IMG/VR virus record: IMGVR_UViG_3300020578_000034
Span: 23,842-87,841 of that record
DNA: 64,000 nucleotides
Direction: 5' to 3' (one strand)
Source of the DNA: a virus
Part shown: piece by piece, positions 13,840-64,000 of the stretch
Layout of the letters: the number at the start of each line of letters is the position of its first letter
Position numbering within the stretch: position 1 is the stretch's first letter
Translations under genes and position numbers: made by a program
The notes under the pieces: generated by a model
Databases searched by the model: none
Seen by the model: the letters and a program-made list of their open reading frames with translations, nothing else
What the model was told of the DNA's origin: nothing

Positions 13840-13878
13840 CTACTCATGCAGTCATCAAACAAACAGTCTTCTACAATT

Positions 13879-13884
13879 GGAGGG
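13879..13884 (+). promoter_or_regulatory. Ribosome binding site deciding the start of protein B
   Basis: GGAGGG lies just upstream of ATG 13888. The earlier in-frame ATG at 13846 has no purine-rich motif before it and sits 6 bases after the stop of protein A, so 13888 is preferred. Confidence 0.65.
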
Positions 13885-13887
13885 ATC

Positions 13888-47050: not shown

Positions 47051-49891
47051 ATGGACGACTCAACAGAACAGGGCGATTGTTGTCCTATCTCGGGGGCGGA
47101 AATCGAGCAGAAGGGCATCGCCTTCGGTCCCAGACAGGTCCGTCCGGATAGTTTTGACGCATACGTTGACAAGGAATCGGCCCGCGCAAGGGCGCGGATG
47201 CTTGGGTGCATCGGAATACGACAATACAGCTCGACGGCGGGTGGCACCGTCTGGATGCCGTGCAGCAACGAGTCCGATTACAGGAAGGTGACCGGCCAGG
47301 ACAATTTGTCGCGGAGACAGCGCAGGAGGATGCTAAAAACCTTCTTCACCGACGGCCTGGAGACCAAGGCCCTCGGCTCAACCATCGGGGCAGTCAGCGG
47401 TCAGGTGAACACGAACCCGTTCACCGCCATAGACGCAGACCTGGACGGTCTCGTACTGGAGGGCCTGGCGCATATCAACATGGGCCGCGGGGTGCCCGAC
47501 CCTACGCCAGGAGGGGCGCAAATTCCATCGGCGCCGACGTCACCCCTTAGGCGGATGGACAGGTCTCCGTTCCAGGTCACCAACGATGATTTCGCCATTG
47601 CCGCAATGTCAAATAGGACGCGGCCGACGCAGGAAGTTCCAACGCCGCCCGTTCGCAAGCGCGATCGGAGAATGAATCGTCCGAGTGCGAAGCTGCGAAT
47701 GGAGCAGTACAGGGACAACGTGGAGGCGGCGCTGAAGGACGACCTGTTCGCCAATTCCTGGCAGAAGGCCGTCGCGGATTTTATCGACGCGGACGCATTG
47801 GGGGACGACGACTCCGACCAATACCTCAAACAAAACCTGTACTCCATCGTTGAGGACGTCGCCTCGAGGGTTGAGTCGGCGGTCGACGAGCAACCAGAGT
47901 TTTCCGTGCCGAGGGGTCGCACCCGAAGGGACGCCGCGGACGCAACTTCGGCGCGCCTGACGGCAAAGGTTCTCGGAACGGTGTCCGAATTGATGAACAA
48001 TCCGCCGGACGCCATGACCGGGAGGGACGACGTTGTCAGAAGACTTACGTCGTCGTTGTTGGAATCCGGAGCGAGGAGGGTTGCGGACACGGGCGGGAAG
48101 CCAGGCGTGTGGGCCTTCCTGATACAGGCGATACTCGGGGGCGCGATCGGAGTCCAGGGAGGCTGGGAGTTGCTGGCGAGGATATTCGGAATAGAGAATT
48201 CAACTGGCTGGATCCCCCACCCAACCGGCCGCAGCCTCGAAATCCTGTCACCCAGCCTTGCCAGACAAAGGTCCAACGAGGCAAGGTCGAGGGCCCTCGA
48301 GAGAGTCACGAGGACCATGGACGCCCTGCGCGACGCCGGTTTCGCGATAGCCGACGCCGGGGACATCCCGTCCGTCGCCGACGACATCGCAGAGGTATTG
48401 GACGGAGACAGGTCAACCGACCTCCCGGGTGACCTGTTGCCCAAGGACACCGCCAAGTCCAGCTCGCTCGACGAAGTGATCAGGAAAATGAGGGAAGCCA
48501 CTGGCATCAGGGACAGCGTGGCGACCAGGAGGCGCCGAGATCCGCGGACATACGTGGAGGAGGATTTGATCACCAGGAATCGCATGGATCTCGTCGGCAT
48601 TCCCACCGGGATCCTCGACGTCTTTGATTCCTCGTCGGTCCCCGCACCTACGCCGTCCGACGGTTCGGCTGCGAGATTGATCGCATCCGGTGGGGTCGAC
48701 GGCCTGAATCCGATGAACGCCAAACTGCTGTACGACGCCATGAGCGACCAAAACTTCCTGCGAACCTTCGTCGCCCCGACCGACTCTCCGTACGCCGCGC
48801 AACTGGCGACCCTTGTCGAGCAGGGGAGGCTGCCGAAGGTGGCGGCGGCGATACTCGAGATGTCGCCGGAGTCAGTGGAGGATTTCCTTGCGGTCAACCC
48901 GAGACCACTGATCCTGTCGGCAAGATCGGCCAGGAAGAAGTTGAGACCCGCCGGCTCGTGGGTGACCCGCATAGACCACGATCCGTTTGAGGTCGCGGCC
49001 CACCTCATGCGGGCGAAGGACTACCACATTTCGGCGATAGCCAACGGCTCGGACTCGCCCGTCCTCCTCGACGCCGTGGACGAGCTGGTCGGCAACAACG
49101 CCTCCGAGACCTCCGCCATCTTCTCGGCGATGGTGGCCAACAACAAGCAGAGATTGGCGGACGCATACGACGGGTCGTTGCAACTGGCGCGGTCGGGGAA
49201 CGGGCTCCTGATGGCGGCGAGAAACCTGATATCAAACGCGACAGAGAACGATTCAACATGGAGCGCCTCACGCAACGCAATCACCCAGGCGTCCAGGGCG
49301 ATGGTCTCCGCAGGAGACGTCTCTGCGGGAATGACGAACACCGCGTCAAGGTACGGAAGGAACTACCCGAGGCACAGACGCAAGAGCGGCGACTGGTCGC
49401 CAATAGCCAACAAGATACGAGACTCGATCAAGCGCTACAAGTCCCGGTATGGCGCCCCAGCGGCGAACTCGGCGGACTTGGCGAGGTTCGTGGACTTCTC
49501 CTACCCCGAACTCCTCGACGAGGCGGCCGAGCTGATCGACCTGATGAAGCAAAAAATAGAATTCGGATCCCTCGCCATGGCCGATTACGCAAGCGACGGG
49601 TGGAGGAACAGGGACGTCGCCGAGCTGGCCCTTGACGAGTTTGACCCGACGAACCTTGAGTCCATATTTGACCCGGGTAGCAGGATGGGCCTGCTGAAGG
49701 CGATCGGCGTCAACCTGGCGGCGGCGGCCAAGATGGCGCCGTCGCGATCCGAGCGAGACGGGGTGATGGACATCCTCGACGAGGTGAACTCCTGGAGCTT
49801 CACCGTCCTCCCGCTGTACACGGAGCCGAGGTCCGTCACATCGCGTCGCAGAGGAATTTTCCCGAGCGTCTCCGCCGACGCCGAGGCTGGC
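47051..49891 (+). other. N-terminal module of protein N
   Basis: 947 residues. A Cys domain with D-C-C-P, then R-x-R-M-L-G-C-I-G-I-R-Q...W-M-P-C, matches the N-terminus of protein M. The DxDxDG/GRGVPDPTPGG module follows at about 47359-47540. The remainder is helical, with one Gly-rich hydrophobic stretch (about 48100-48190, GVWAFLIQAILGGAIGVQGG) that could be a membrane or packing helix. A weak SAGM variant (49331) may divide it further. Confidence 0.65.
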
Positions 49892-52800
49892 ATGACGGTC
49901 AACAGGGGGGTCCCGGAGGACATCAGGCAAACGCTCATGTCAAGATCCGCACCGCTCGGATCCGGAACTGAGGGAACGCCGAAGATCCGCATGAGAAGAA
50001 AGTTGATAGAGAGGGCCAACGAGTTGCTCGCGGCAAAGCAGTCAGACGACCTCGTGGACAGGATCGGCATGGACCCGAAGGGGCCAGTGATTGACATAGC
50101 AGAGACGTTCCTCGTGACTGCGGAGCAATTCCGGTGGGACCAGCAGACCACCGCCTCCTTCTACGAGGACGTTGCGGAGATGATGAACGAGATGGTCCAG
50201 GAAGTTCCGAATCCCAAAAAGCGCCAGCTCCTGGCCGACATGTTCACCGACGCCCTTGAGGACATCGCAGAGAACATGGATGACGGCAACACGGAATTTT
50301 TCGCGAGTACGGGGGACATCCCGTCGAGGACGGTGGGCAGACTGGCGCGCAGGCTAGGACGGACCGATCAGCCACGCGCGCGATCCGACTCCGAGGCCGG
50401 CATGGTCGGCCCGGACGACGAGCCGCGCGCCATCGTCGAGCCGATGCCGGAATTCCCGGACGACGAACCGCGCGCCATCGTCGAGCCGATGCCGGAATTA
50501 CCGCCTACGCCGCCGAGGAGGAGGATGACGGACGGGGAAATGGTCACCATCTACGGCGAGGTACAGCGCATCTTCCGCTCGCTCGACAACCCGAACATTT
50601 CCAAGAACCCAAACGACGCGGCTTCGTGGAGAGAAAAGATGAGGGCGGCCGGAATCAACATTCCGTTCTCCTCCGATGAGGGCCTGGACGAGGTCGCCGA
50701 CCAGACGCTCCCCGATGCGCCCGACGACCCGCGAGCAGTGTTCTCGGATCCCTTCGCAGGCGTGTCCCAAGACGCGGTCCGGTACCTCGACGACCTGATG
50801 TCCATAGTCCTAGAGGAAATAGGGGCGAGCGTCAGCAGCACGACAGAGGATTTTGTAAGGGACCTCAGGAGGAGGACTGGTGTGAGGAACTCCTCGGAGT
50901 TCCACGACTTGGTCCGCGCGCTGAGCACCAGCGACGGCAGGGCCACCCTCGCGGATTTCTCCGAGCAGGTGATGGAGAACAACTACTTGACCACCTCGGC
51001 CATCAAAAAGAGGATGACCGACAGGTTCCCGGATTTCTACGACGTCATGGACTACTCGGGCTCTGGCGGCGGCGACGCGGAGGCGGGCATGTCGGGCCCG
51101 ATCGTCGACAGGATAAGGGAGAGGTACGTCGCCCAGAGGAAGATAAGGGAGCTCGGGGGTGTCGCCAAGATGAATGACGAGAAGGACTACAAGATGCGGC
51201 AGACGGAGGCGAGGCGACGCAGGCTCCTGTCGATGACGGAACCCGACGGCTTTTTCGACTTCGTGACGAGGGGCGTCACGGACCAGAGGTCCCCCCTCTA
51301 CCTGAGACCCATAGCGGAACGCATGGGTGGCCTGTACAAGTACATCAAGGAAATGTCGGATGCGCAGGTTGACGCAACCTGGCAGGCCCTGGAGAATTTC
51401 GTCAATCAAGCGAGGCGCGACATGTTCACCGGCGGCTTGTCGTCCCCGTACATGACGCTCTACAACGCGGCGAAAGCCAAGACAACGATGGACGACCCGG
51501 ATTTCAGGCCCGATGGGGGGAGATTCAGCGACGACGAGTTGCTGTCGAAGATGGAGATGAATTCTTGGGATGAGATTCTGCCGCCCCCGCTGGACATGAC
51601 GATATCCGAGTCCGATATTGATGCGGTGCCGTCATTCAAAGCGAAGGCGCAGGCAGCCCTGGAGGTGCTAGCCATCGACAGGGCGCAGCTGATGGAGCTT
51701 CTCACTGGTGCGGAGACCTCGGAGGAAGCAAGAGGAAAACTTTCGGAGGAGGTGGAGACCCAGGAAAGAAACGTAAGACAGACGATCGCAAAAAGGGCGG
51801 GGAAGGTCGAGTACGTCCCGACCCAGCTCCACATGGAGCAGATAGCGGCAGCAGACGCAATAACTCCGCTCGACTCGGAGTCCCTCGTTGCGTTCGTGTC
51901 AACTCTCGACGGCGCACAGCTCTCGTACGTGTCGTCGGCATCAATCTCCACGGAACAGGCGAAGGAACTCGTCAAGGCGGAATCACGGGCGATATCGTTC
52001 GCCAGCGCCTCAAGGAAGTTGTTCGCCATCAGGAGCCTCGCCGACCTGGAGCCAGAAGAGGCGACCTTTTTCAGGAGCAAGGCGTCGCAGCTGATCGGGG
52101 ACGCGACCATCAGCGAGCCGGTCAAGAAACTGATAACCGCGGTCGTCGGCGACGATGACGTAGCCGCATCGCAAGCCCTCTCGGAGATTGAGCCGACGGA
52201 CGACAACGAAAACAGCCTCGTGAAGGTCATGTGGGAGATGGGTCGCAATTCCAAGGGCACGTTCGTGACCGCACTGCTGCCACCGAGCATCGACGAAGCC
52301 GAGAGGGATGCCACGCTCAGGGCGAAGGCGCTCGGCGTTCTCAAGTCGCAACCAGACGGCGGGAGGGCAATGGCCCGCAGAACGATTGACCACCTCCCGA
52401 AGGACGGCAGGGGGTACGAGCCGGTGCGCGTCGTGCCCGAACCGGGCGAGGGAGAGGCGAAGATCATCAGCTTGGCGGAGGCGATCCGGGCCTACGACGG
52501 AACCCCCGAATCGGCAGCGAAGATAGTCGAAGCGATGACCGACTCGCAGATCGAGAGACTGAGGAACAACTACATAATCCCGTCGATCATCCAGCGGATG
52601 GACAGGAAGGCCTACGAGGCGAGGCTGGAGCAGAGCTCCATAGCGCAGACCAGGGCGAGAATAGACAACCTCGGCAGACGCCTGGAGTTGCTCACCTTCG
52701 GAACGGTGGATTCGGGGAACACGGTTGAGGAAATCATCTCAAGGACGGACGAGGCACTGTCAAAGGCGTTCGGCGACAAGGTCTCAGACTTGTCCATGTT

Positions 52801-55800
52801 GACCCGCGAGGAGCGCAGTTATTACGGCGACATAATCGATTACTTCATCTCCGGTGGCACTGAAATCTTCGATGACCCGTCGCAGTACGGGATGGCGTCG
52901 CGGGCCATGAAGGAAGCGACTGCGGAAGTCCCAGAAAATCCGACACTCCCGCCGCTCGACCCGAACCCCGACGCGCCCCCACCGCCAGACGACGGGAGCG
53001 TAACCAACGTCGCACCGGACGCGCCCAAGTCGGATGACGACGGATTCTGGGACTCCATGGGCATCGAGGCGGGCATGGCGCCACCCACCCCGGGGCCTCC
53101 GGTGCCACCGGATGAGCCGTCGAAACGCAGGCTTGAAGCCATGCCCGAGGAGACGGCGCGCAAGTTGTTCGGCGACGACATAGCCGGTTTCGTGCGGGAG
53201 GGAACGTGGACCTTCGGGGACCCGACCTTCCCGCGGACCGCGATCCCCGAAGAGGCCACGTTGGCCCGGAAGGTTATTTCAGCCCTGTTCGCCGTCCAGC
53301 AGGGGGAGATGCCGGACGACGTCGCCGAGCGCATGAGGTCGGAGGGAATTTACTCGGCGGCCCAGCTGATCTTCAGGGCCCTGTCGGCGCGGACGCTCGA
53401 GAAAATCAGGAACATGCCGGACCCACCCTACGACTTCCCGGCTGGCCCATACGACCCGAGGAGCGACAAGGACAAGGACAGGCAGTCCTTCTTCCTCGCG
53501 GCGATGCAGGAATACGTGTCACTGCACCTCGCCCTCGGCGGCGGTGCGTTGCCCATTTACGACGACGCACCGGGCAGGGAGCCGTCTCGCTACTCATTCG
53601 AGCTCACCAGGGAAGACTTCCAGATGGTCATACAGGATGACGATCTGATGAACTACAGGCTGATCTACAACCCGGGTCAGCCCAACGAGGCTGTCCGCGC
53701 GGACGAGGCGGTCGTAGCTAGGGAAGAATTCGTCGGCGACCCGTCGGAGCACCCCCTCATCCAGTCGATCGACCGTACACTGAGCCACCTCAGACGGCAG
53801 TTCCCCGCCTTCAGTGACTGGTTGGATCAGGACAACAGGTATTCGAGAATCCTCGGGGGAATGCACTACGAGAAGCTGGATGACAGCGGGCAGCCCCGCT
53901 TCGGTACGGGAATAATCGATTTGGTCAGGGCCGACCCTTCCTCAATGGATTTGGAAAAGGTCATCCGCGAGGTCGTCGATCAGTTTGTCGATCAACACAG
54001 TTTGCTCGGGGTGGACGGCTCCAGGTTGGTCGCCGACGCGCGCAGCCTCGGCCCGGACCCCGACGACGCCAGTCCTTTCCCGAGCATGACCTCTTACCCA
54101 AGCCCGGACTACGTGGAAACCTTCTCCAAACCGGCCGCGGACATTGCGAGGCACAAGAAGATAGCCACGTCGACGGCGAAGGCGAGCGCCGCTGCTAGGC
54201 AATCCTGGTGGACCATGTTCACCACCGGAACGTTGATGGACCAGTTCGAGATAGCAGCCGTCGCCGTGACGGACAAGGGCGACAACTTCCACCCCGATGC
54301 GATACTTGCCGGCCTGAGGAAATACGCCAGGGACAATAACCTCGCTGGCCAGTTTGACGCGTACCTCGGCGCGGCGCAGGCCGCCGCCTCTGCGAGATTC
54401 AACTCGGTCGCCCTGCAAACGATACAGAACACCCTCAACGAAATGGCCAGGAATAGAGGAGGAATAAAGGGTGAGCTGTTGAGACTGGCCAAGCTCCAGA
54501 AGACGCTCGAGAAGCATTACAAGGAGCTCAGTCGCCACTATCAGGACAGGATCAGGGCGAAGATACAGAGCATCTACTCCGCCTGGGCGTTGTTGTATGG
54601 CTCGTGGGTCGACGAGAGGAAGCTCGTCGACGGAAAAGTTGCCAAGGGACAGATGACCTCGCAACAAGCCGTCGATCATCTGCAAAAACTGTATTTCGAT
54701 ATGCAACCGACGATGTACGCTGCCGTCAACATGATCGCGGACCTGAGCAGGAAGGCCGCCGCCTCAGACCGCGCGCGCACGGCCGTCGAGAGGCAACAGG
54801 AGGAGATACGCGAGAGAATCGAGGAGATCAGGGAGGCGGCGCGCCTGACGGGCAGGGACGCCGAGGCCGGCATGGCCCTGATGAGGGGCATCAACAACGC
54901 CTTCGACAACCTCGCCGAGGACCCTTCCGGTCTGTCGGACGACTACAAAGCCGGCTCATCAATCGGGCGCTCCACGTTCGGCGTGGTCGGCGGCGACAGG
55001 GTCGGGGCACCGCGGGCGAGACGGCTGCTCACGACGAACGAGAAGAAGCTCGCGTCCGCGATCTCGAGGATGAACGACATGTTCTCGCAGAACAACGTTG
55101 ACGAGATCGGGCAGGTGCCGAGCATCCGGGCCGCCATGGAGACTTTGAGAGGGGGACGCCCCGACAGGGTCGTGCCGCAGATTCGCACGGGGGATCCGGG
55201 CGAGATCGAGCAGGCGAAGGTCACCGCCGCGATGATGATGAGGGCCGACGCGGAGGCGGAGGCGACGACCCGGAGGATATTGGGCGCGCGCTTCAAGCGG
55301 TTCTCCGATCTCGCCATGAACACGCTGCCGGGCCTCACGAGGAGGGTGGTCGAGGACATAGTGGTCGACGGCGTCGCCGAGGCCATGCGGGCGAACGCCG
55401 TCAGGGAGGCAGACCTGGACGCGGCGCTGACGATGTACTCGGAGGCGATCCGCAACGTGAAGTACATGTCTGTGTTCAACCCAGTCCAGAGAACGGCCGA
55501 CATCCTCAACCTGGAACCCGACGACGTGTCCGACGCAATAGCCACGGAGAGCATGATCCTGAAGACGAGCAATCTGCTCAGGATGGCCCAGTCGTATGCG
55601 TCAAGCCTCTCCGGTGCCTACGGCAGGAACTCCGTGCTCCGGATGACCAACAACAGGTTCCCGGAGCTGAGAAACTTCGGCTCGCTCTTCCTTGAATCAA
55701 TTTTTGCCTCGCCGTCGGATGCGTCGTCGCGCAAGCTGAATTCGGCGATCTCGTTGAACAAACTCATGAGGTTCAACTCCCGCGCTGCGGCGGCGGCTTT

Positions 55801-58800
55801 CGGCGTCTCCGACGACGTCGCCCAGGTCATTTCGGCATCGGCGGCGCCACGGACGCGACCCACCGAGCTGAGCAACCCGCTGCCGCACGACTGGAACTTC
55901 ATGACGTTCCGTGACAGGCAGTCTTGGCTCGGTTCCGAGGAGGCCTTCAACTCGCTCGGGAGGGCGGGGGTAAACGACGAACTTAGCAAGCTGCAGTCGC
56001 AAATCGAGGATTTCGGGTCAATGGACGGCCCGTACCCTGCGCTAGCCCGCATCATCACGGGCAACGCCACGGGCACCGGGGCGTTCGGCAGGCAGCTGAT
56101 CACGGCCGACGGAAGAAGCCCGATCTTCTCATCAGTCGGTTTCGGCCGGGGCGACATGGTGCGAAACGGCAGGAACCAGATCTCGGCCCTCATGGGTGCG
56201 GTGCCCGGGATATCCCAGATGTCGGACAGGGCTCTCAGTCGGTTCCTCGGCGCGCCGTACGACGTCGTCGCCGAGTTCAGGAGGGATGGAGCCGCCGCAT
56301 CGCCGGAAGCCGCGGAGCGCCTGGCGCTCGCCTTCGGAAAGATCTCGTCCGAGGTGTGGCCGCCAGACGCGCCGCAATCGGATGCCGACCCAGGAAACTT
56401 CTACTGGCTCGGGTCGACCTGGGACAGGTCGGGCGAGATAATTGCGGCGATAGGCGAGGGGGCGGACCAGTACGCGGTCGCCGCCGACATGCCGAACGGG
56501 CAGTTCGTCGCAGAGAGGGTGACGCAACTGGTCGAAGACGGAACGGTGGGACGGTTCTACGACCAGGTCGGGCTGGAGGAGATAACGACCGAGGATGCTC
56601 AGTCATTCGTCGCTTCAATCGCACCGAGGAGCAGGAAGGGAGTCGTGGAGATACTGGCGTCCTCCGGATACAGGGAGCAGGACATAATCGACGCGACTGG
56701 ATTCAACCCCAACACGGTCAGGAACTCGTTGCACGAGCTGAGGAAACAGGGCCTGCTGCCCGAGGTGGTCGGCTCACCGAGGTGGATAGCGCGCAACGGC
56801 GACGCGGTTGTCGCCGACTTCTCGTCGGGTCTGTCAAAGCGCGCCCTCATGAAGAAGTACGGAATAGGCGCGAAGACCCTGGACTCGATAATCGGGTCGT
56901 CGCGCGACGGATCAAGGATGGACGACGCCTACGGCGACGCCGAGGCGGGGATGTCAAACCGCAGGTTGCCCGACAATACCCCGATGTCGGACGGACCGCA
57001 GCCCGACTGGAGGGACGAGAGGCAGACGAGGGCCGACGGAACGCTGGTGGACCGCGAGACGCAGAGCCCGCCCGCGAACGTCGCCAACCCCTTCGTCACG
57101 CCAGGTTCCCCCGCCTCGCTCGGTCTCAACGGCGAGATCAAGGACCCAGAGAGGATGCAGAACTGGGCGAGGGCGTTGTCAGCCTGGATCTCGTTCGCGC
57201 TCGAGGGGGGCTACTTCAAGAACCGCACGGAGGAAATGTCCCAGAGCGAGCTGATTATGGCCGGAATTTTCGGCGACAGCGGGAGCCCGGGCTTCGAGGA
57301 GGCCGAGTTCGAGATCGGCATGACCGACCCCGTTCGGGGCAAGAGGTTCAAGGCCTTTGAGATCGCAACTCGGCAGGACAACCCCGCCAACGAGCTGTTG
57401 TCCGTCAACGCAGTGCCCTCGATCATCCGCCCCCAGTTCGACGCGACCGGGGTTTACACGGGAATACTGCCGATGCTGAGGGGGATGATCCTCGCCACCT
57501 ACGACAAGTACTTCAAAAAGTTGTCCGACCGGGAAATGGGATCGTGGGAGGGGGTCAGCACCCAGGACCTCGTGGATGCCGGTCTGCTTGACGAGCCGGA
57601 AATGCCGAGGGACGCGAGCGACGAGCTCCGCCTCAAGTTGTGGCAGCTCAGGCAGATGATGCGAAACCCGAACATGGTCGACGCACCCCCGCTATTCGAG
57701 CCGGGCGACGAGGTGGTCATGCGCACGATCATCCCGTTGATGGCCAACGCCGACGAGATGAACACGATGCGCGCCCAGCACGGCGCGTCCCCCGAAGGAA
57801 TCCTCGGAGACCCAGCGGACAGGATTCAGTCGTCCACCATCAGCGGCGTGGAACTCTGGCGTGGGACCAGGGACGCAGAATTCGAGGAGATGGCCCTCAC
57901 GGGCGTCCCAATGTTCTCGAACCTGCTGCTCGGCTCCGTCGTGACGGGCGATCTCGGGGCGAGGAAGATCGTGGACAACCTCACGCCGCGGCAGATCATG
58001 CTCTCCAACTGGGTGTACGGGATGTACACGGCCCTGGAGCCACTGGTGAACGCGTTCGCCGAAATGATGCCGATGAAACGGTTCCGCTCCGCCTCCCCCA
58101 ACCTCCCGGACGAGCCCGGCGCAAGCATCATGCTCGGCGACCCGTTGTACCTCCCGACCAGGGAGGTCGACGACCAGGTGTTCGCCTTCGCGTTCGACTC
58201 GTTGTTCAAGGCTTTGCAGGGAGTCTCGGAGTCACCCGAAATGACGATCCTCGAGTCTCTCCCGAGCGGGGAGTTCGAGCAGCTCTACGGTGGCGACCCC
58301 GGCACAAACCCGTCCAAGGCGGAGGCGCTCAGGATGTCCACGAAGGTTCTGGCCCGCATCTTGGCCGACGTCCTCGCGACGGGCATATACAGGAAGGCCG
58401 TTCAATCGATTGCGAAGGACGACGACGGAAGGACGTCGCCCTTCTACAAGGAAGAGATGCAAACCGACTGGTTCAGGTTGGCGAGACCGAGGGTCGACTC
58501 GTTCGGCTACTGGTCGATGTACGGGCCGAACATCGTCTACGCCGGCACGGGTGGAGACATATACGAGCCGGGGTGGAACGACCAAACCAACCCGATTTCG
58601 GAACTTGGAAGGAACGGAGCGCAGCTGGCCGCCGACGCCGTCAAGGCGGACAAGGAGGCAATGCTCCAGCTCCAGAGGGTGATCGACGAGACCCCGGGCA
58701 AATACTGGTGGGAAACCGAGGCCGCGTACGGGGAACTCACCGACGACCAGATACTGAACATGCACCCGGAGGAGTTTGCCGATTACGTCGCATCCCTGTC

Positions 58801-61800
58801 GATGTACGGCGAGGGCGAGCTGGATGACGAGAAGGCGAGCCAGATGCTCACGAGACTCGTCGGACGACTCTCCGCAATGGGTTACCCGAAGGCCGAGCTC
58901 GACCGATTCGACGAGTGGATCGGGCCGATCATCTCTGGGATGCCGGAGGGGACGGTGACCAAGGAGTCCGTTCTCCGCCAACTGAAGAACATTTTCCCGT
59001 GGCTCGACATCGACAGGATGGACGACATCTACCCAGTGGTTGGCACGAGCTTCAACGAGGCCGTCAACGAGATGCGCAGGACGCTGGGAGGCTTGGGCCC
59101 CGAGACTTTGTCGGCCGTTTACCGCGGCAGGGGCCAGCTCCGTCTCGCCGCGGAATCGGCCAACCGCGCGCTGACGCCCGACGCCGACAGAGAGAAGGCA
59201 TTGCAGCAGATGAACCTGTACGTCATCCCGGTGATAAAGGGCTTGATGGCACTGCACAGGACAAACATCGAGATCGGGTTCCGGCAGGTCGCATCGTTTG
59301 CCGAGGGTCTGAAGCGTCTGACCGAGGCGACGCCCATGAGCGGGATACAACGGGAGCTCATGACCATCGCATCACTGCTTGACGATTTGCGCGAAAAGGG
59401 ATCGATAAACGACGTCACTCACTCCAAGCTGATGATGGAGATCGCCCGCGCCGGAGCCACGACCATGTTCGGAGACCTGGAGTTCGGAAACACCGTGATG
59501 GATGCCATCGCAAACGGGAGCGCCGATGACGTGATGACGTTCATGATGCTGATAGACGACGCCGTCTCGGACAGCGTGGAGGAGGACAAGCGACGCGAGT
59601 TCATCGACAAGTACAAGGGGTACATGACCGCCGCACAAAACACCTTCGGCGACGCATTCGGGCAGTACGTCAGGAGCGGTTTCTACGGAAGCGTGAAGAC
59701 AATCGGCGAGGCGGTGAGGGAGATGGAGCCATTCATCCTCGCCACCGAGCGCGCGCGCAAGAGGAGGACCCTGCTCCAGAGGTACAAGCGAGAGGTGATT
59801 GACCCCGTAAAGGACTCCCTGCTCACCGACGAGGAGAAGTTCAAGAACCTGAGGACCTTCAACGAGTGGCTCGACGCCAGCGGGTTCCCGGACCTCACGT
59901 ACGACAAGGGTGGCTCGGGTGGCGACGGAGAGGCGGCGATGTCGGCCCTCACGAGGACCGTGATGGCAAGATTCACCGATGACGCCGCGTCCGCGGTTAT
60001 CGAGGGCTACGAGGATTCGGCCAAGTCGGGTTCGTCAAGACTCAACCTCGGGCACATGCTGTCAGGGGCCTGGAGGGCGCTGATGACCGACACGAGGCCC
60101 GGCTCGTACGCGTCAAAACTAAGGAGGCTCAACATAAGACCGGACAGGATGGCCGCGGCGCTCGCGAGCATCACCACCCCGAAGGACGGCCCGTCGCCGA
60201 AACCCACGGATTATTCCACGGCTGCCAAGAACGCCATGATCGGGGCCATACGGGCCGCCACCAGGAGGGGCGACGAGTTCATCGATCTCGGCGACCTGCT
60301 GCAGGCGATACTCGACCCGTCACTCAGGGGACGTGAAGACGACGGCGTCGATGAAGCCCTGAAGGTCGCCGACATTTCTCCGAACGTGATAAGGATGGCC
60401 CTAGCGCAGTCAAGAATCTCTGGCGGCAGGGAGCCGCTCCCGGACGCCGAGGCCGGCATGTCCGCCAGTCGCATGGCTTTGAACTCCGCCGACCGACGCG
60501 ACGACCTGAAGAGGAACAAGATGCTCGCCAACGGCATGTGGTTCAACTCCGACCGACAGATCCCTGTCGCCACGGGGACCGCGACCGACGGGCAGCTCGT
60601 CGACGAGGTGGAAAGACTCATGAACATCTACGCCATCGGCGCCGCGAGGTCCGAACTGGAGCCCGTGGACTTCCGCGGCGGGGAATCACCCTTCTCCAAC
60701 GCGGCGATCAGGCAGACCAACTCGCGCCTCATCCACGGCGACAACGGCCAGGAGCCGACCGACCTCGTCGGGGCAATCAGGCACGCCATGGACAGGGCCG
60801 ACGCCCTGTTGACGGACGGAATGGAGCAACGCAGGTTCCACGAACTCAAGTCAAAGATGCGCCTCTACTTCGACAACGACGAGCACATGCCAGACGAATC
60901 GGGGGACGCCGAGGCCGGCATGACGAGAAATTTCAACGAGATGATCGAGCCGATAAATGACAACTTCGGGCGCTCGGAGAAGATGGGGCAGAAGCAGTAT
61001 TACGAGGGCATCTACGGCGACGCGGACCTGAGCGAGGCGGAGTTGCGAAAGGCGGCCGACGTCGCGTCGCTCGGGTCGCCCTTCGACATTTCGCGCAACC
61101 TCGACGGCAACGAGGACGACGTCAACTGGAGCACGAGCCAATGGTCGTTCAACAAGGATCAGACCTACGTCGAGGCGGCGGACTCCGTGATGATAAGGAT
61201 GCGAGACGGCGACTTGGCCACGGCAGAGATTGCGATGATCTCGCGCAAGAGCGGCCCTTTCAGGGACGCCATGGCCCTCGTAGGCGGACTGAGGGACGAG
61301 GGCGAGGATTTCATGACCACGGCGGCGAGGGAGACGGCGGAGGAGGTCGGAGTCTCCCTGGAGAGGGCGCTACAGGCGCAGTACATAGGAACGATAGAGT
61401 CGCCCGACTGGGATCCCCGGTTCGTCAACGGAGCGAAAGTCGGCGCCGGGATGTTCGTCCTGCCTTGGGACACGTCCCTCGTGGCCGCGTCCGACGCCGC
61501 TGGTGCGCGCTGGGTTCCCCTGTCGGAGATAGCAGCGGGCCAGCACAGGCTCGCCTTCGGGCACGCCGAATGGATACGAAGGGCCGTGGCCGCCATGCAG
61601 ATAGACCCGTCGTCGGACCCCTACGGGGACATTCGTCTCTCGATAGCAAAAAGGCTCGGGTTGCTCTCCAAGGCCGCGAGGGTGAGGAACCAGAAGATGA
61701 TCGCCATGGTCAACCTCGTCCGCAGGGCGACGGGCAAGAAGTTGTTCCCCGAGCAGGGCGACATGCCGCACCCGATGATGCCGTGGGGCAACAAGGTTGC

Positions 61801-62806
61801 GAGCTCCTCGTGGAGATTCGGGCCCGATGCCGAGGCGGGAATGTCCGCCTCACCCATCGACGACTCGCTGCCAAGGGAGCTCGGCCTTCTGTCCGTCCAG
61901 AGCACGATGCCCGCCAGTCTCCTCGAGAAAGGAGCGGACACCGCGGGCTTCTACAAGGTCGGGCACTCCAGGGGCGGCGGCGTCGACCCCGTCTCAGCCG
62001 ACGACTTGTTCGCGGCGTGGGGGGACAAGACGAGGGTGGAGAGTCTCTGGAGGCCGTACGTCGAACTCAGCCTCGAGCGGGCGAGGAAGGGCGACGTACC
62101 GAACGACCAGCAGAGACCGACGGTTTACATCCTCGGAGGCGCGTCAGGCGTGGGCAAGTCACTCGCCCGGAAGACAGGACTGTCGGGGATACCCAACTAC
62201 GACAGCGCCGTCGTTGCCGACCCCGACGACGCAAAGGCCATGATGCCGGAGGCGAGGCTGTGGTACGCGAGAAGGATGCCCAACGCGGCCCCCCTTGTTC
62301 ACCCAGAGTCGCGCCAGGTGGCGGCCGTGATGGCGAGAGCCGCGACCAAGGAGGGGCTGGACCTCGTGTACGACACCAGCGGGCAATTCAACGACGGTTT
62401 CAGGGACATCACGGACTGGAGGAAGATGGGGTACGACTTGGTCGCGCACTATTTCTTCGCCCCAGAGAGCACCCTGCAGCGGAGGGTCATTGAACGACAG
62501 GAACAGTTCGGGCGCGGCGTCCCACAGCACATCGTTTCCACGATCCAGTGGAACCTCAAGCAAATGATCCCGGACTTCATAGGACGACAGTTGTTCGACG
62601 AGCTGTACATATGGGACACGGAGAAGGACCCGGAAAGACCGCAACTGGTCGGCCAGGTGCTGCTCGGGCAGCAGGGCCAGCCCTCGACGTTGGAGGTGAA
62701 GCACCCGTATCTATTCAGGTATCTGTTCGAGGACAGGACCGCACCGGACGGGGGCAAGATCGAACCTCGCAAAACGAAGGTCATAACCATCCCGTTCGGC
62801 AAATGA
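47051..62806 (+). CDS. Giant polyvalent protein N (5,251 residues)
   Basis: Starts at ATG 47051 after a short intergenic gap with a modest GGGA-type ribosome binding site. Nine exact EAGM junctions have Met codons at 49892, 50402, 51089, 53075, 54872, 56951, 60458, 60920 and 61841, plus EAAM at 59939 and SAGM at 49331. The N-terminus carries the Cys domain shared with protein M and the shared D-A-D-L-D-G...GRGVPDPTPGG module, closed by A-I-A-A-M-S (Met codon 47606). Later modules include two HTH units, tandem ClpC N-domain repeats, a Nudix hydrolase and a terminal zeta-toxin-like kinase; most of the middle is helical and unassigned. It lies two genes before the major capsid gene. Likely a head-packaged effector polyprotein (inference). 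Confidence 0.94.
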   Translation: MDDSTEQGDCCPISGAEIEQKGIAFGPRQVRPDSFDAYVDKESARARARMLGCIGIRQYSSTAGGTVWMPCSNESDYRKVTGQDNLSRRQRRRMLKTFFTDGLETKALGSTIGAVSGQVNTNPFTAIDADLDGLVLEGLAHINMGRGVPDPTPGGAQIPSAPTSPLRRMDRSPFQVTNDDFAIAAMSNRTRPTQEVPTPPVRKRDRRMNRPSAKLRMEQYRDNVEAALKDDLFANSWQKAVADFIDADALGDDDSDQYLKQNLYSIVEDVASRVESAVDEQPEFSVPRGRTRRDAADATSARLTAKVLGTVSELMNNPPDAMTGRDDVVRRLTSSLLESGARRVADTGGKPGVWAFLIQAILGGAIGVQGGWELLARIFGIENSTGWIPHPTGRSLEILSPSLARQRSNEARSRALERVTRTMDALRDAGFAIADAGDIPSVADDIAEVLDGDRSTDLPGDLLPKDTAKSSSLDEVIRKMREATGIRDSVATRRRRDPRTYVEEDLITRNRMDLVGIPTGILDVFDSSSVPAPTPSDGSAARLIASGGVDGLNPMNAKLLYDAMSDQNFLRTFVAPTDSPYAAQLATLVEQGRLPKVAAAILEMSPESVEDFLAVNPRPLILSARSARKKLRPAGSWVTRIDHDPFEVAAHLMRAKDYHISAIANGSDSPVLLDAVDELVGNNASETSAIFSAMVANNKQRLADAYDGSLQLARSGNGLLMAARNLISNATENDSTWSASRNAITQASRAMVSAGDVSAGMTNTASRYGRNYPRHRRKSGDWSPIANKIRDSIKRYKSRYGAPAANSADLARFVDFSYPELLDEAAELIDLMKQKIEFGSLAMADYASDGWRNRDVAELALDEFDPTNLESIFDPGSRMGLLKAIGVNLAAAAKMAPSRSERDGVMDILDEVNSWSFTVLPLYTEPRSVTSRRRGIFPSVSADAEAGMTVNRGVPEDIRQTLMSRSAPLGSGTEGTPKIRMRRKLIERANELLAAKQSDDLVDRIGMDPKGPVIDIAETFLVTAEQFRWDQQTTASFYEDVAEMMNEMVQEVPNPKKRQLLADMFTDALEDIAENMDDGNTEFFASTGDIPSRTVGRLARRLGRTDQPRARSDSEAGMVGPDDEPRAIVEPMPEFPDDEPRAIVEPMPELPPTPPRRRMTDGEMVTIYGEVQRIFRSLDNPNISKNPNDAASWREKMRAAGINIPFSSDEGLDEVADQTLPDAPDDPRAVFSDPFAGVSQDAVRYLDDLMSIVLEEIGASVSSTTEDFVRDLRRRTGVRNSSEFHDLVRALSTSDGRATLADFSEQVMENNYLTTSAIKKRMTDRFPDFYDVMDYSGSGGGDAEAGMSGPIVDRIRERYVAQRKIRELGGVAKMNDEKDYKMRQTEARRRRLLSMTEPDGFFDFVTRGVTDQRSPLYLRPIAERMGGLYKYIKEMSDAQVDATWQALENFVNQARRDMFTGGLSSPYMTLYNAAKAKTTMDDPDFRPDGGRFSDDELLSKMEMNSWDEILPPPLDMTISESDIDAVPSFKAKAQAALEVLAIDRAQLMELLTGAETSEEARGKLSEEVETQERNVRQTIAKRAGKVEYVPTQLHMEQIAAADAITPLDSESLVAFVSTLDGAQLSYVSSASISTEQAKELVKAESRAISFASASRKLFAIRSLADLEPEEATFFRSKASQLIGDATISEPVKKLITAVVGDDDVAASQALSEIEPTDDNENSLVKVMWEMGRNSKGTFVTALLPPSIDEAERDATLRAKALGVLKSQPDGGRAMARRTIDHLPKDGRGYEPVRVVPEPGEGEAKIISLAEAIRAYDGTPESAAKIVEAMTDSQIERLRNNYIIPSIIQRMDRKAYEARLEQSSIAQTRARIDNLGRRLELLTFGTVDSGNTVEEIISRTDEALSKAFGDKVSDLSMLTREERSYYGDIIDYFISGGTEIFDDPSQYGMASRAMKEATAEVPENPTLPPLDPNPDAPPPPDDGSVTNVAPDAPKSDDDGFWDSMGIEAGMAPPTPGPPVPPDEPSKRRLEAMPEETARKLFGDDIAGFVREGTWTFGDPTFPRTAIPEEATLARKVISALFAVQQGEMPDDVAERMRSEGIYSAAQLIFRALSARTLEKIRNMPDPPYDFPAGPYDPRSDKDKDRQSFFLAAMQEYVSLHLALGGGALPIYDDAPGREPSRYSFELTREDFQMVIQDDDLMNYRLIYNPGQPNEAVRADEAVVAREEFVGDPSEHPLIQSIDRTLSHLRRQFPAFSDWLDQDNRYSRILGGMHYEKLDDSGQPRFGTGIIDLVRADPSSMDLEKVIREVVDQFVDQHSLLGVDGSRLVADARSLGPDPDDASPFPSMTSYPSPDYVETFSKPAADIARHKKIATSTAKASAAARQSWWTMFTTGTLMDQFEIAAVAVTDKGDNFHPDAILAGLRKYARDNNLAGQFDAYLGAAQAAASARFNSVALQTIQNTLNEMARNRGGIKGELLRLAKLQKTLEKHYKELSRHYQDRIRAKIQSIYSAWALLYGSWVDERKLVDGKVAKGQMTSQQAVDHLQKLYFDMQPTMYAAVNMIADLSRKAAASDRARTAVERQQEEIRERIEEIREAARLTGRDAEAGMALMRGINNAFDNLAEDPSGLSDDYKAGSSIGRSTFGVVGGDRVGAPRARRLLTTNEKKLASAISRMNDMFSQNNVDEIGQVPSIRAAMETLRGGRPDRVVPQIRTGDPGEIEQAKVTAAMMMRADAEAEATTRRILGARFKRFSDLAMNTLPGLTRRVVEDIVVDGVAEAMRANAVREADLDAALTMYSEAIRNVKYMSVFNPVQRTADILNLEPDDVSDAIATESMILKTSNLLRMAQSYASSLSGAYGRNSVLRMTNNRFPELRNFGSLFLESIFASPSDASSRKLNSAISLNKLMRFNSRAAAAAFGVSDDVAQVISASAAPRTRPTELSNPLPHDWNFMTFRDRQSWLGSEEAFNSLGRAGVNDELSKLQSQIEDFGSMDGPYPALARIITGNATGTGAFGRQLITADGRSPIFSSVGFGRGDMVRNGRNQISALMGAVPGISQMSDRALSRFLGAPYDVVAEFRRDGAAASPEAAERLALAFGKISSEVWPPDAPQSDADPGNFYWLGSTWDRSGEIIAAIGEGADQYAVAADMPNGQFVAERVTQLVEDGTVGRFYDQVGLEEITTEDAQSFVASIAPRSRKGVVEILASSGYREQDIIDATGFNPNTVRNSLHELRKQGLLPEVVGSPRWIARNGDAVVADFSSGLSKRALMKKYGIGAKTLDSIIGSSRDGSRMDDAYGDAEAGMSNRRLPDNTPMSDGPQPDWRDERQTRADGTLVDRETQSPPANVANPFVTPGSPASLGLNGEIKDPERMQNWARALSAWISFALEGGYFKNRTEEMSQSELIMAGIFGDSGSPGFEEAEFEIGMTDPVRGKRFKAFEIATRQDNPANELLSVNAVPSIIRPQFDATGVYTGILPMLRGMILATYDKYFKKLSDREMGSWEGVSTQDLVDAGLLDEPEMPRDASDELRLKLWQLRQMMRNPNMVDAPPLFEPGDEVVMRTIIPLMANADEMNTMRAQHGASPEGILGDPADRIQSSTISGVELWRGTRDAEFEEMALTGVPMFSNLLLGSVVTGDLGARKIVDNLTPRQIMLSNWVYGMYTALEPLVNAFAEMMPMKRFRSASPNLPDEPGASIMLGDPLYLPTREVDDQVFAFAFDSLFKALQGVSESPEMTILESLPSGEFEQLYGGDPGTNPSKAEALRMSTKVLARILADVLATGIYRKAVQSIAKDDDGRTSPFYKEEMQTDWFRLARPRVDSFGYWSMYGPNIVYAGTGGDIYEPGWNDQTNPISELGRNGAQLAADAVKADKEAMLQLQRVIDETPGKYWWETEAAYGELTDDQILNMHPEEFADYVASLSMYGEGELDDEKASQMLTRLVGRLSAMGYPKAELDRFDEWIGPIISGMPEGTVTKESVLRQLKNIFPWLDIDRMDDIYPVVGTSFNEAVNEMRRTLGGLGPETLSAVYRGRGQLRLAAESANRALTPDADREKALQQMNLYVIPVIKGLMALHRTNIEIGFRQVASFAEGLKRLTEATPMSGIQRELMTIASLLDDLREKGSINDVTHSKLMMEIARAGATTMFGDLEFGNTVMDAIANGSADDVMTFMMLIDDAVSDSVEEDKRREFIDKYKGYMTAAQNTFGDAFGQYVRSGFYGSVKTIGEAVREMEPFILATERARKRRTLLQRYKREVIDPVKDSLLTDEEKFKNLRTFNEWLDASGFPDLTYDKGGSGGDGEAAMSALTRTVMARFTDDAASAVIEGYEDSAKSGSSRLNLGHMLSGAWRALMTDTRPGSYASKLRRLNIRPDRMAAALASITTPKDGPSPKPTDYSTAAKNAMIGAIRAATRRGDEFIDLGDLLQAILDPSLRGREDDGVDEALKVADISPNVIRMALAQSRISGGREPLPDAEAGMSASRMALNSADRRDDLKRNKMLANGMWFNSDRQIPVATGTATDGQLVDEVERLMNIYAIGAARSELEPVDFRGGESPFSNAAIRQTNSRLIHGDNGQEPTDLVGAIRHAMDRADALLTDGMEQRRFHELKSKMRLYFDNDEHMPDESGDAEAGMTRNFNEMIEPINDNFGRSEKMGQKQYYEGIYGDADLSEAELRKAADVASLGSPFDISRNLDGNEDDVNWSTSQWSFNKDQTYVEAADSVMIRMRDGDLATAEIAMISRKSGPFRDAMALVGGLRDEGEDFMTTAARETAEEVGVSLERALQAQYIGTIESPDWDPRFVNGAKVGAGMFVLPWDTSLVAASDAAGARWVPLSEIAAGQHRLAFGHAEWIRRAVAAMQIDPSSDPYGDIRLSIAKRLGLLSKAARVRNQKMIAMVNLVRRATGKKLFPEQGDMPHPMMPWGNKVASSSWRFGPDAEAGMSASPIDDSLPRELGLLSVQSTMPASLLEKGADTAGFYKVGHSRGGGVDPVSADDLFAAWGDKTRVESLWRPYVELSLERARKGDVPNDQQRPTVYILGGASGVGKSLARKTGLSGIPNYDSAVVADPDDAKAMMPEARLWYARRMPNAAPLVHPESRQVAAVMARAATKEGLDLVYDTSGQFNDGFRDITDWRKMGYDLVAHYFFAPESTLQRRVIERQEQFGRGVPQHIVSTIQWNLKQMIPDFIGRQLFDELYIWDTEKDPERPQLVGQVLLGQQGQPSTLEVKHPYLFRYLFEDRTAPDGGKIEPRKTKVITIPFGK
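49892..51088 (+). other. Two small modules of protein N
   Basis: Segments of 170 and 229 residues split by S-D-S-E-A-G-M (Met codon 50402). Both are helical and acidic with no known motif. The second begins with two 45-bp tandem repeats. Confidence 0.5.
50414..50503 (+). repeat. 45-bp tandem duplication in gene N
   Basis: Two copies (50414 and 50459) encode DDEPRAIVEPMPE followed by F/L-P. They differ at only a few bases. They lie directly after an EAGM junction. Confidence 0.85.
51089..53074 (+). other. Helical module of protein N
   Basis: 662 residues, nearly all predicted helix, with charged coiled-coil stretches (about 51640-51800 and 52590-52760). A Pro-rich linker precedes the next junction, which has Ile before Glu (G-I-E-A-G-M). 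No family recognised. Confidence 0.5.
53075..54871 (+). other. Uncharacterised module of protein N
   Basis: 599 residues. A Pro-rich start, a globular first half, and a long helical second half ending in a coiled-coil (about 54740-54840). No catalytic motif recognised. Confidence 0.5.
54872..56950 (+). other. Module of protein N with two helix-turn-helix units
   Basis: 693 residues. Near the C-terminus, about 56632-56764 (GYREQDIIDATGFNPNTVRN) and 56812-56905 (GLSKRALMKKYGIGAKTLDS) have the helix-turn-helix pattern seen in protein D. The N-terminal portion is helical and unassigned. Confidence 0.6.
56951..59938 (+). other. Largest uncharacterised module of protein N
   Basis: 996 residues between an exact EAGM and an EAAM junction, helical with Trp/Tyr-rich patches (about 58480-58720). 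No recognised catalytic motif. Its size suggests that it may hold several domains. Confidence 0.5.
59939..60457 (+). other. Module of protein N: tandem ClpC/ClpA N-domain (Clp repeat) without ATPase
   Basis: 173 residues form two Clp-N repeats. The first has RFTDDAASAVIEGYEDSAKSG...L-N-L-G-H-M-L-S-G, matching the F-T-x-x-A-x-x-x-L/I...H-L-L-x-G pattern. The second has YSTAAKNAMIGAIRAATRRG...I-D-L-G-D-L-L-Q-A-I-L. In host ClpC these repeats bind substrates and adaptors. Here they stand alone between two junctions, with no Walker motifs nearby. Confidence 0.7.
60458..60919 (+). other. Small uncharacterised module of protein N
   Basis: 154 residues, helical, no recognised motif, bounded by exact EAGM junctions on both sides. 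Confidence 0.5.
60920..61840 (+). other. Module of protein N: Nudix hydrolase
   Basis: 307 residues. At about 61286-61354 is a complete Nudix box, G-x5-E-x7-R-E-x-x-E-E-x-G-V, with all catalytic residues present. It follows V-G-G within an alpha/beta core and is trailed by W-V-P-L-S-E-I, typical of the fold's last strand. It should hydrolyse a nucleoside diphosphate-linked compound; ADP-ribose or NAD+ derivatives would fit with the neighbouring ART modules (inference). Confidence 0.88.
61841..62806 (+). other. C-terminal module of protein N: zeta-toxin-like kinase
   Basis: 321 residues. The P-loop G-G-A-S-G-V-G-K-S at 62136-62162 is followed by V-A-D-P-D-D-A-K-A-M-M-P-E and a long helical part with D-T-S-G. 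This is the zeta-toxin/PezT layout, whose members phosphorylate UDP-sugars, but a polynucleotide kinase-like role is also possible. No antitoxin gene is adjacent. As the last module it would be released by a single cut. Confidence 0.75.
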
Positions 62807-63182: not shown

Positions 63183-64000
63183 ATGTCGCAAGACACGAGC
63201 AGACTCCGCGAGTTGCAGTCAGCACTCCGCGAGAAGATGCAGCAAAACAAGGAAATTGCGGACTCGTTCCGCGTGGACAACGGAACGGTCGTCGTGACCA
63301 CCGAGCAGAAGTCGGCGTTCGACAAGAACATGTCCGACATCCGCGAGATCAAGGGACTCATCGAGGGTCTCGAATCACTCGGCAAGGTGCAGGACTGGGG
63401 TTCAACCTCGGCAGACGCATCGGTCGCCGCCCAGGCAGCAGCCGTCACGCCAGTGGCGCAGGCGCCTAGGACGATCGGCCAGCAGTTCGTCGACTCGCCG
63501 GAGTTCAAGTCGCTCCAGGGCGGTCGCAACGGCGCCAACATGGCAGCTCCGTGGCAGTTCAGCGGCTCGCTGACCCAGTACGGCGTGAAGGACGTCTACA
63601 CCTCGATGGCGACGGGCAACCTCGCCAACGGTGCTGATCCGAACTTCGGAACGGTCCAGCGCGACCCGATGGTCACCCAGCCGACGAGGACGAAGCGAGT
63701 CAGGGACCTGTTCCCGTCGCGCTCGACCACGGCCTCGACGATCGAGTACTTCCGTCACTTCGGGTACACGACGCCAGGCACGGATGCCGTCAACAATGCG
63801 GCACCGGTCGCCCAGCGCGATGGTTCCGCATTCGCTGCGAAGCCACAGTCGAGCCTCCAGTTCGTCGCAGAGTCCGCTTCGGTGCGGACGCTTGCCCACT
63901 ACGAGGCAGCGCACCGCAACGTGCTCGCAGACGAGCCGCAGCTCCGAAGCATCATCGACAACGAGCTCATGTACGGCCTGCGTCTCCTCGAGGACACGCA
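63183..64000 (+). CDS. HK97-fold major capsid protein (right-truncated)
   Basis: Open to the right edge (272 complete codons visible). The first ~75 residues are a charged coiled-coil (MSQDTSRLRELQSALREK...), like the HK97 delta/scaffolding domain. An Ala/Gln-rich linker follows, then the N-arm and E-loop region (TRTKRVRDLFPSRST...IEYFRHFGY). The P-domain-type segment is P-Q-S-S-L-Q-F-V-A-E-S-A-S-V-R-T-L-A-H. It ends in D-E-P-Q-L-R-S-I-I-D-N-E-L-M-Y-G-L-R-L-L-E-D, the hallmark of HK97-type capsids. Arg codons here are mostly CGC, unlike the upstream giant genes. No EAGM occurs in the visible part, so its own maturation site, if any, is of another type. Confidence 0.93.
   Translation, partial: MSQDTSRLRELQSALREKMQQNKEIADSFRVDNGTVVVTTEQKSAFDKNMSDIREIKGLIEGLESLGKVQDWGSTSADASVAAQAAAVTPVAQAPRTIGQQFVDSPEFKSLQGGRNGANMAAPWQFSGSLTQYGVKDVYTSMATGNLANGADPNFGTVQRDPMVTQPTRTKRVRDLFPSRSTTASTIEYFRHFGYTTPGTDAVNNAAPVAQRDGSAFAAKPQSSLQFVAESASVRTLAHYEAAHRNVLADEPQLRSIIDNELMYGLRLLEDT

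What the first reader, a model, noticed from the sequence alone, without database searches (positions are those of the whole stretch)
59939..60457. Stand-alone tandem ClpC N-domain in a phage polyprotein
Two Clp-N repeats are present without any ATPase. In actinobacteria ClpC1 is essential and its N-domain is where adaptors and several natural antibiotics act. A released N-domain could decoy substrates or block the host protease.
Basis: partly seen in the sequence, partly recalled or inferred. Interest (0 to 1): 0.78.

Follow-up and report, generated by a model that had tools for sequence, protein, structure and literature searches.

The report
Phage polyprotein module mimicking Clp N-domain
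A phage related to those of soil actinobacteria carries, inside a giant protein that looks built to be cut into pieces in the virus head, a piece shaped like the part of the bacterial Clp protease that picks its victims, but with none of the engine, so the phage may deliver it into the cell to interfere with, or borrow, the host's protein quality control.

Summary
Window 59939-60457 (+) encodes a 173-aa tandem Clp_N domain with no AAA+ ATPase. The window protein alone misses Pfam, but its homologues reach Clp_N (4e-12, 6.5e-14), its profile finds ClpC2/ClpC N-domains in PDB (4e-12), and its AlphaFold model matches ClpC1-NTD (Foldseek 7e-7, TM 0.8). The module exactly fills the space between two 'EA(G/A)|M' junctions of a 5,251-aa ORF just upstream of the major capsid gene. 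That motif recurs 30 times (0.8 expected) in five giant ORFs, one of which begins with an S78 prohead protease. Related phages use another motif (TAS|M, SGS|M, PxGK|M) at the same boundaries, with no Shine-Dalgarno, which argues for proteolytic release. A shared N-terminal tag suggests capsid loading (inferred). Related phages without the module carry a J-domain module in the same polyprotein. The 'ClpC1 decoy' reading is only partly supported: both phosphoarginine-site glutamates and key cyclomarin contacts are missing, so it is not a plain ClpC1 copy. By contrast, mycobacteriophages Myrna and Phabba encode a mis-annotated stand-alone protein, 86% identical (Phabba) to M. tuberculosis ClpC1-NTD, giving a laboratory system for the idea. 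New variant of a known kind.

The parts
47051..62806 (+). Giant polyprotein ORF, 5,251 aa, directly upstream of the major capsid gene
   Evidence: equivalent ORFs in relatives open for 5.0-5.55 kaa
47402..47515 (+). Shared N-terminal tag 'NPFTA.DADLD.LVLEG....NMGRGVPDPTP' (putative capsid-targeting or scaffolding element)
   Evidence: HMM hits in 5 large ORFs of this phage, including the protease ORF, and in L019, L086, L087
59927..59941 (+). Left junction GEAA|M (putative prohead-protease site)
   Evidence: homologous boundary AEAG|M, TDAG|M, PVAS|M, NAG|M, PIGK|M, VSGS|M in relatives
59939..60457 (+). Tandem Clp_N module, 173 aa, no ATPase
59969..60175 (+). Clp_N repeat 1 (about residues 11-79); E32-equivalent is Gly38
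   Evidence: alignment to 5hbn, A2
60212..60418 (+). Clp_N repeat 2 (about residues 92-160); E106-equivalent is Gly118
   Evidence: alignment to 5hbn, A2
60446..60460 (+). Right junction AEAG|M (putative prohead-protease site)
60458..60919 (+). Module X, 154 aa, helical, no known fold; in the loci surveyed it was found only where the Clp module is, next to it
60920..61840 (+). NUDIX module
   Evidence: Pfam NUDIX 4e-11
61841..62803 (+). Zeta-toxin-like P-loop kinase module
   Evidence: Pfam Zeta_toxin 3e-19
63183..63998 (+). Major capsid protein (HK97 type), runs off the window; AGGAGG before its start
   Evidence: Pfam Phage_capsid 2.9e-5, PHROG major head protein 3e-12
1..13839 (+). Other giant polyprotein; its N-terminus, upstream of the window (L085 9477 on), is the S78 prohead protease
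   Evidence: Pfam Peptidase_S78 2.6e-13; 12 junction motifs within the window part

Best explanation
The segment is a diverged, ATPase-free ClpC-type N-domain carried as one cargo module of a head-associated phage polyprotein. Steps: (1) the polyprotein is loaded into the prohead, perhaps through its shared N-terminal tag (inferred); (2) the phage S78 prohead protease cuts before Met at the xEAG|M junctions and frees a 173-aa Clp-N protein (strongly indicated, not shown biochemically); (3) it is ejected with the DNA, together with module X, the NUDIX and the zeta-like kinase (inferred from location and from the polyvalent-protein precedent); (4) in the cell it works as a free recognition domain inside the host's Clp/chaperone network, most likely by holding unfolded or adaptor-bound clients through its hydrophobic face so that they are not handed to ClpC-ClpP (inferred). 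It is probably not a phosphoarginine decoy and not an antibiotic sponge of the ClpC2 kind, because the residues for those functions are gone. Component probabilities: fold 0.97, proteolytic release 0.85, virion packaging and ejection 0.6, interference with host Clp client delivery 0.35.
For: Fold. Release: 30 EA[AG]M motifs in 17,998 aa against 0.78 in shuffles, with codon use at the junctions close to background; other phages use a different motif at the same boundaries, near-uniform within each phage; no Shine-Dalgarno at 29 junctions of four relatives, while the window capsid gene has AGGAGG; S78 protease at the N-terminus of one giant ORF, matching the maturation proteases of Cantare, DalanDe and Gilgamesh. 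Packaging: location between portal-MuF/protease and capsid genes, shared tag in five ORFs, polyvalent-protein precedent including zeta-like kinases (PMC5512222). Host-network role: related phages lacking the Clp module carry a J-domain (HPD motif kept in L019) as a module of the same polyprotein; phages are known to target ClpC through an adaptor-like protein (SPO1 Gp53, PMC6873191). Constraint: dN/dS 0.09-0.49 in module comparisons.
Against: No proteomics, no cleavage assay, no binding data. Key ClpC functional residues are lost: E32 equivalent is G/A/S/P in all eight, E106 equivalent is Gly in five of eight, E89 is I/V/R, F2 is M/I/L. The module evolves faster than its NUDIX and kinase neighbours in most pairs (most synonymous sites are near saturation). 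Host is inferred from phage relatives only.
Confidence: 0.4

Rival explanations
1. Head-assembly role: the Clp-N fold serves inside the virion or during morphogenesis (polyprotein folding, scaffolding, holding neighbouring cargo unfolded for passage through the tail) and never acts on host Clp.
For: Location in the head gene block next to capsid and protease; ClpC pocket residues lost; always adjacent to module X in the loci surveyed.
Against: The module is absent from many related phages with similar capsid and protease, so it is not a core assembly part; cargo neighbours are enzymes typical of injected proteins.
Confidence: 0.25
2. Adaptor or recruiter role: like the J-domain found in sister phages, the module recruits a host chaperone or unfoldase to help pull in, refold or degrade chosen proteins, rather than inhibiting it.
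For: J-domain module in eight related records, none of which has the Clp module; SPO1 Gp53 acts as an adaptor.
Against: An N-domain is the docking site of the unfoldase, not the adaptor. The exclusion pattern (hypergeometric P=0.04) is confounded by phylogeny and by fragmentary contigs.
Confidence: 0.2
3. ClpC1 mimic/decoy in the strict sense: it competes with the host ClpC1 N-domain for phosphoarginine substrates, adaptors or natural antibiotics.
For: Closest PDB sequences are stand-alone ClpC2 proteins, known to titrate cyclomarin from ClpC1 (PMC10030653); Myrna and Phabba encode a close ClpC1-NTD copy.
Against: pArg glutamates and CymA contacts are not conserved in this family.
Confidence: 0.1
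4. Not a cleaved polyprotein: each Met after EAG is an internal translation start of a fused gene.
For: In some window junctions GAGGCC(GGN)ATG looks like a weak Shine-Dalgarno plus start.
Against: Codon choice at the motif is close to background; relatives replace the motif by TAS, SGS, SGR, PxGK with no Shine-Dalgarno at any of 29 junctions; there are no stop codons between modules.
Confidence: 0.05

Closest known systems
ClpC2 of actinobacteria (M. tuberculosis 8ad9, M. smegmatis 8b9o/9p2p; PMC10030653)
   Same: Stand-alone tandem Clp_N without AAA+; nearest PDB sequences to the phage profile
   Different: ClpC2 is a free cellular gene, binds cyclomarin through residues conserved with ClpC1 (F2, F80, E89) and represses its own promoter; the phage module lacks F2 and E89 and sits between protease junctions in a polyprotein
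Myrna gp251 / Phabba gp260 (mycobacteriophages)
   Same: Phage-encoded stand-alone tandem Clp_N, no ATPase
   Different: Free gene near the terminase with a C-terminal extension; Phabba copy 86% identical to M. tuberculosis ClpC1-NTD, both pArg-site glutamates kept; annotated as Clp ATPase / ATP protease in the records
Polyvalent proteins of phages and conjugative elements (PMC5512222)
   Same: Multidomain proteins, many in phages and probably packaged; zeta-like kinase and NUDIX partners also reported; peptidase-mediated release proposed
   Different: That paper's main text has no mention of Clp; there embedded peptidase domains, here an S78 prohead protease with dozens of motif-marked junctions
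Prohead-protease-processed ejection proteins of SPN3US (PMC10052503, PMC7411985; abstracts only)
   Same: Prohead protease cleaves head proteins, many of which are packaged and enter the cell
   Different: Those are separate gene products; here many modules share one ORF
SPO1 Gp53 (PMC6873191)
   Same: Phage protein acting on host ClpC
   Different: Adaptor-like ligand of ClpC, not a Clp_N domain

Membership tests
Clp_N domain (PF02861) | Sequence profile match | tested here: met
   Not for the window protein alone; met for homologues L054 4e-12 and L113 6.5e-14 and by profile to ClpC2/ClpC in PDB 4e-12
Clp_N domain (PF02861) | Two-repeat helical N-domain fold | tested here: met
   AlphaFold2 pTM 0.81; Foldseek ClpC1-NTD E 6.9e-7, TM 0.81
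ClpC/ClpA/ClpB unfoldases | AAA+ ATPase domains in the same protein | tested here: not met
   No AAA+ unfoldase domain in the ORF; the only P-loop match is the zeta-like kinase in another module
ClpC2-type stand-alone N-domain | Free Clp_N protein without ATPase | tested here: inconclusive
   No ATPase (met), but free only if the junctions are cut, which is inferred
ClpC2-type stand-alone N-domain | Cyclomarin-contact residues F2, F80, E89 | tested here: not met
   M/I/L, Y/F/W/L/I and I/V/R at those positions
Phosphoarginine-reading ClpC N-domain | E32 and E106 of the two pArg pockets | tested here: not met
   E32 lost in 8 of 8; E106 is Gly in 5 of 8, Glu/Asp in 3; sites named in PMC12583610
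Prohead-protease-processed polyprotein | Phage protease in the head gene block | tested here: met
   Peptidase_S78 2.6e-13
Prohead-protease-processed polyprotein | Recurrent cleavage motif at module boundaries, selected at protein level | tested here: met
   30 against 0.78 expected, near-background codon use, motif turnover between phages
Prohead-protease-processed polyprotein | Cleaved products found in virions | not testable with these tools
   Uncultured phage; needs mass spectrometry
Polyvalent injected proteins | Modules ejected into the host | not testable with these tools
   Inferred from location and partners only
ClpC1 decoy/inhibitor | Binds ClpC1, its adaptors or its clients and alters degradation | not testable with these tools
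   No binding or activity data

The most novel reading that the evidence does not exclude
A lineage of actinobacteriophage-like phages ships interchangeable protein-quality-control modules (a bare Clp N-domain in some, a bare J-domain in others) inside the virion as pieces of prohead-protease-cut polyproteins, to take over the host's Clp/chaperone network from the first minute of infection.
Probability: 0.3. Interest if true: 0.85.

Novelty: new variant of a known kind. Interest (0 to 1): 0.62.

Why it matters
ClpC1 is an essential actinobacterial protease component whose N-domain is the docking site of adaptors and of several natural antibiotics. A phage-made N-domain without the motor is a natural reagent for separating client recognition from unfolding. 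The case also shows head-block proteins in phages organised like true polyproteins, with dozens of junctions whose motif changes from phage to phage, and points to an immediately testable laboratory counterpart (Myrna and Phabba on M. smegmatis). I found no description of either in the papers searched, a search limited to open-licence PMC papers.

Tried and rejected
Direct Pfam, PHROG and single-protein viral-contig searches with the window sequence gave nothing; neighbours found through the capsid protein were needed. tblastn of the window module against named phages gave only chance hits, but the less diverged homologue L113 found Myrna, Phabba and others. Foldseek against viral models found no counterpart. 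Internal translation starts were rejected by codon use and lack of Shine-Dalgarno. The capsid N-terminal site NGAN|M does not change with the polyprotein motif, so it gave no co-variation test. The pArg-decoy and antibiotic-sponge readings were lowered by residue loss. Module X: model pLDDT 70, no PDB match. A genome-contig scan with L113 found only an ordinary full-length Clp ATPase, so no host was identified that way. Rate comparison: most synonymous sites are near saturation and the capsid rows rest on short partial alignments, so those rows were ignored.

Full report
WHAT IS THERE. The segment lies between two copies of a recurring junction, GEAA|M and AEAG|M. Downstream in the same ORF come an unknown helical module X (60458-60919), a NUDIX module (60920-61840, 4e-11) and a zeta-toxin-like kinase (61841-62803, 3e-19); the next gene is the HK97-type major capsid protein. 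The window is part of an 87,841-base IMG/VR virus record.

THE CLP-N ASSIGNMENT. The window protein is too diverged for Pfam, but phmmer against PDB puts ClpC2 first at E=0.006. Capsid-protein neighbours gave homologues at the same place in other phages, and a profile search added L113 and L114. The phage profile hits ClpC2 at 4e-12 and many ClpC/ClpC1 N-domains at about 1e-7 or better. L054 and L113 exceed the Pfam Clp_N cut-off, with both repeats hit separately in the records of L113, L114 and L054. A template-free AlphaFold2 model (pLDDT 84, pTM 0.81) matches ClpC1-NTD (8ibp, E 6.9e-7, TM 0.81 on the target). No viral model in BFVD matches. No AAA+ unfoldase domain is in the ORF.

THE POLYPROTEIN. 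EA[AG]M occurs 30 times in 17,998 aa of five giant ORFs; shuffled sequences give 0.78 on average, 3 at most in 200 shuffles. Codons at the motif follow background use (GAG 22 of 30, 0.73 against 0.70), so the amino acids seem to be selected, not a DNA signal. Related phages have TAS|M (L007), xAG|M (L002, L006), SGR|M (L019, L055, L057), SGS|M (L113) or PxG(K/R/S/N/A)|M (L054, L114), each near-uniform inside its own genome and, in the phages that carry the Clp module, at the same module boundaries. None of 29 junctions in four relatives has a Shine-Dalgarno in the 15 bases scanned, while the window's capsid gene has AGGAGG. Upstream of the window, the ORF that runs into window 1-13839 starts with a Peptidase_S78 prohead protease (2.6e-13) that aligns with the maturation proteases of actinobacteriophages, next to a portal-MuF fusion and terminase. 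A tag 'NPFTARDADLD.LVLEG....N.GRGVPDPTP' is found near the N-terminus of five large ORFs, including the protease ORF. I infer, but have not shown, that the tag sends these proteins to the prohead.

DISTRIBUTION. Of 31 related records, nine have the Clp module and eight have a J-domain in a 2.4-4.2 kaa ORF; none has both (hypergeometric P=0.04, confounded by phylogeny and by incomplete contigs, and two of the nine are near-duplicates). In L019 the J-domain begins right after an SGR-type junction, keeps the HPD motif and precedes the kinase module. In the loci surveyed, module X was found only in Clp-module phages. The Clp module is under purifying selection (dN/dS 0.09-0.49) but changes faster than the NUDIX and kinase modules in most pairs.

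FUNCTIONAL RESIDUES. In ClpC the two phosphoarginine pockets involve E32 and E106, and cyclic peptides contact the hydrophobic groove and K85 (PMC12583610); residues F2, F80 and E89 of ClpC1 are critical for cyclomarin (PMC10030653). Mapped through the 5hbn alignment, the E32 position is G/A/G/S/G/P/P/P, E106 is G in five and E/D/E in L054, L113 and L114, E89 is I/V/R, F2 is M/I/L, position 80 stays hydrophobic, and T7 is invariant. So the fold and a hydrophobic position are kept while the specific pockets are not.

MECHANISM. Best supported: prohead-protease release, ejection, then a free recognition domain in the Clp/chaperone network, most likely holding clients away from ClpC-ClpP. Only the fold is near certain; release is strongly indicated; ejection and target are inferred. 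An assembly role and a recruiter role remain open.

KNOWN COUNTERPARTS. Stand-alone Clp-N proteins exist in cells (ClpC2). While testing novelty I found that mycobacteriophages Myrna (gp251) and Phabba (gp260) encode free 221-235 aa tandem Clp_N proteins (Pfam about 1e-34 to 1e-35) annotated in the records as ATP protease or Clp ATPase. Phabba's is 86% identical to M. tuberculosis ClpC1-NTD over 145 aa and keeps the ligand residues. A 595-kb uncultured phage has another. Hence phage-borne bare Clp-N is recurrent; what is new here is its place in an apparently cut polyprotein and its divergence. Terminase, tail sheath and capsid all have actinobacteriophages (Gordonia, Arthrobacter, Brevibacterium) as nearest named relatives, which makes an actinobacterial host likely but unproven.

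Noticed in passing
L123:2504-3169 (Phabba gp260) and L124:2468-3175 (Myrna gp251): Mycobacteriophage genes annotated as Clp ATPase / ATP protease are stand-alone tandem Clp_N proteins, Phabba's 86% identical to M. tuberculosis ClpC1-NTD, with a phage-specific C-terminal extension.
   Followed up: partly
L019:7187-7951 (and L009, L018, L050, L055, L057): J-domain modules (HPD motif intact in L019) inside the same kind of polyprotein in phages lacking the Clp module.
   Followed up: partly
window 17817-25190: Giant ORF with a dense array of sigma-70 region 4 / helix-turn-helix matches (Sigma70_r4_2 2.5e-23) divided by DGEAG|M junctions.
   Followed up: no
window 34314-37055: 913-aa ORF with the shared tag and a zincin-like HEIGHVLDH motif but no Pfam match; possible metallopeptidase as in polyvalent proteins.
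   Followed up: no
window 13846-15624: ORF made largely of tandem copies of RPAGRPVDRLPGAGGP-type repeats next to the protease polyprotein.
   Followed up: no
window 1-13839: Polyprotein contains a weak 3'-5' exonuclease (RNase_T) match with a DWETTG motif and a sigma-70 region 4-like module.
   Followed up: no
L125:3016-3642: 595-kb uncultured phage LR756511 encodes a 208-aa stand-alone protein with two GTEH-type Clp_N repeats.
   Followed up: no
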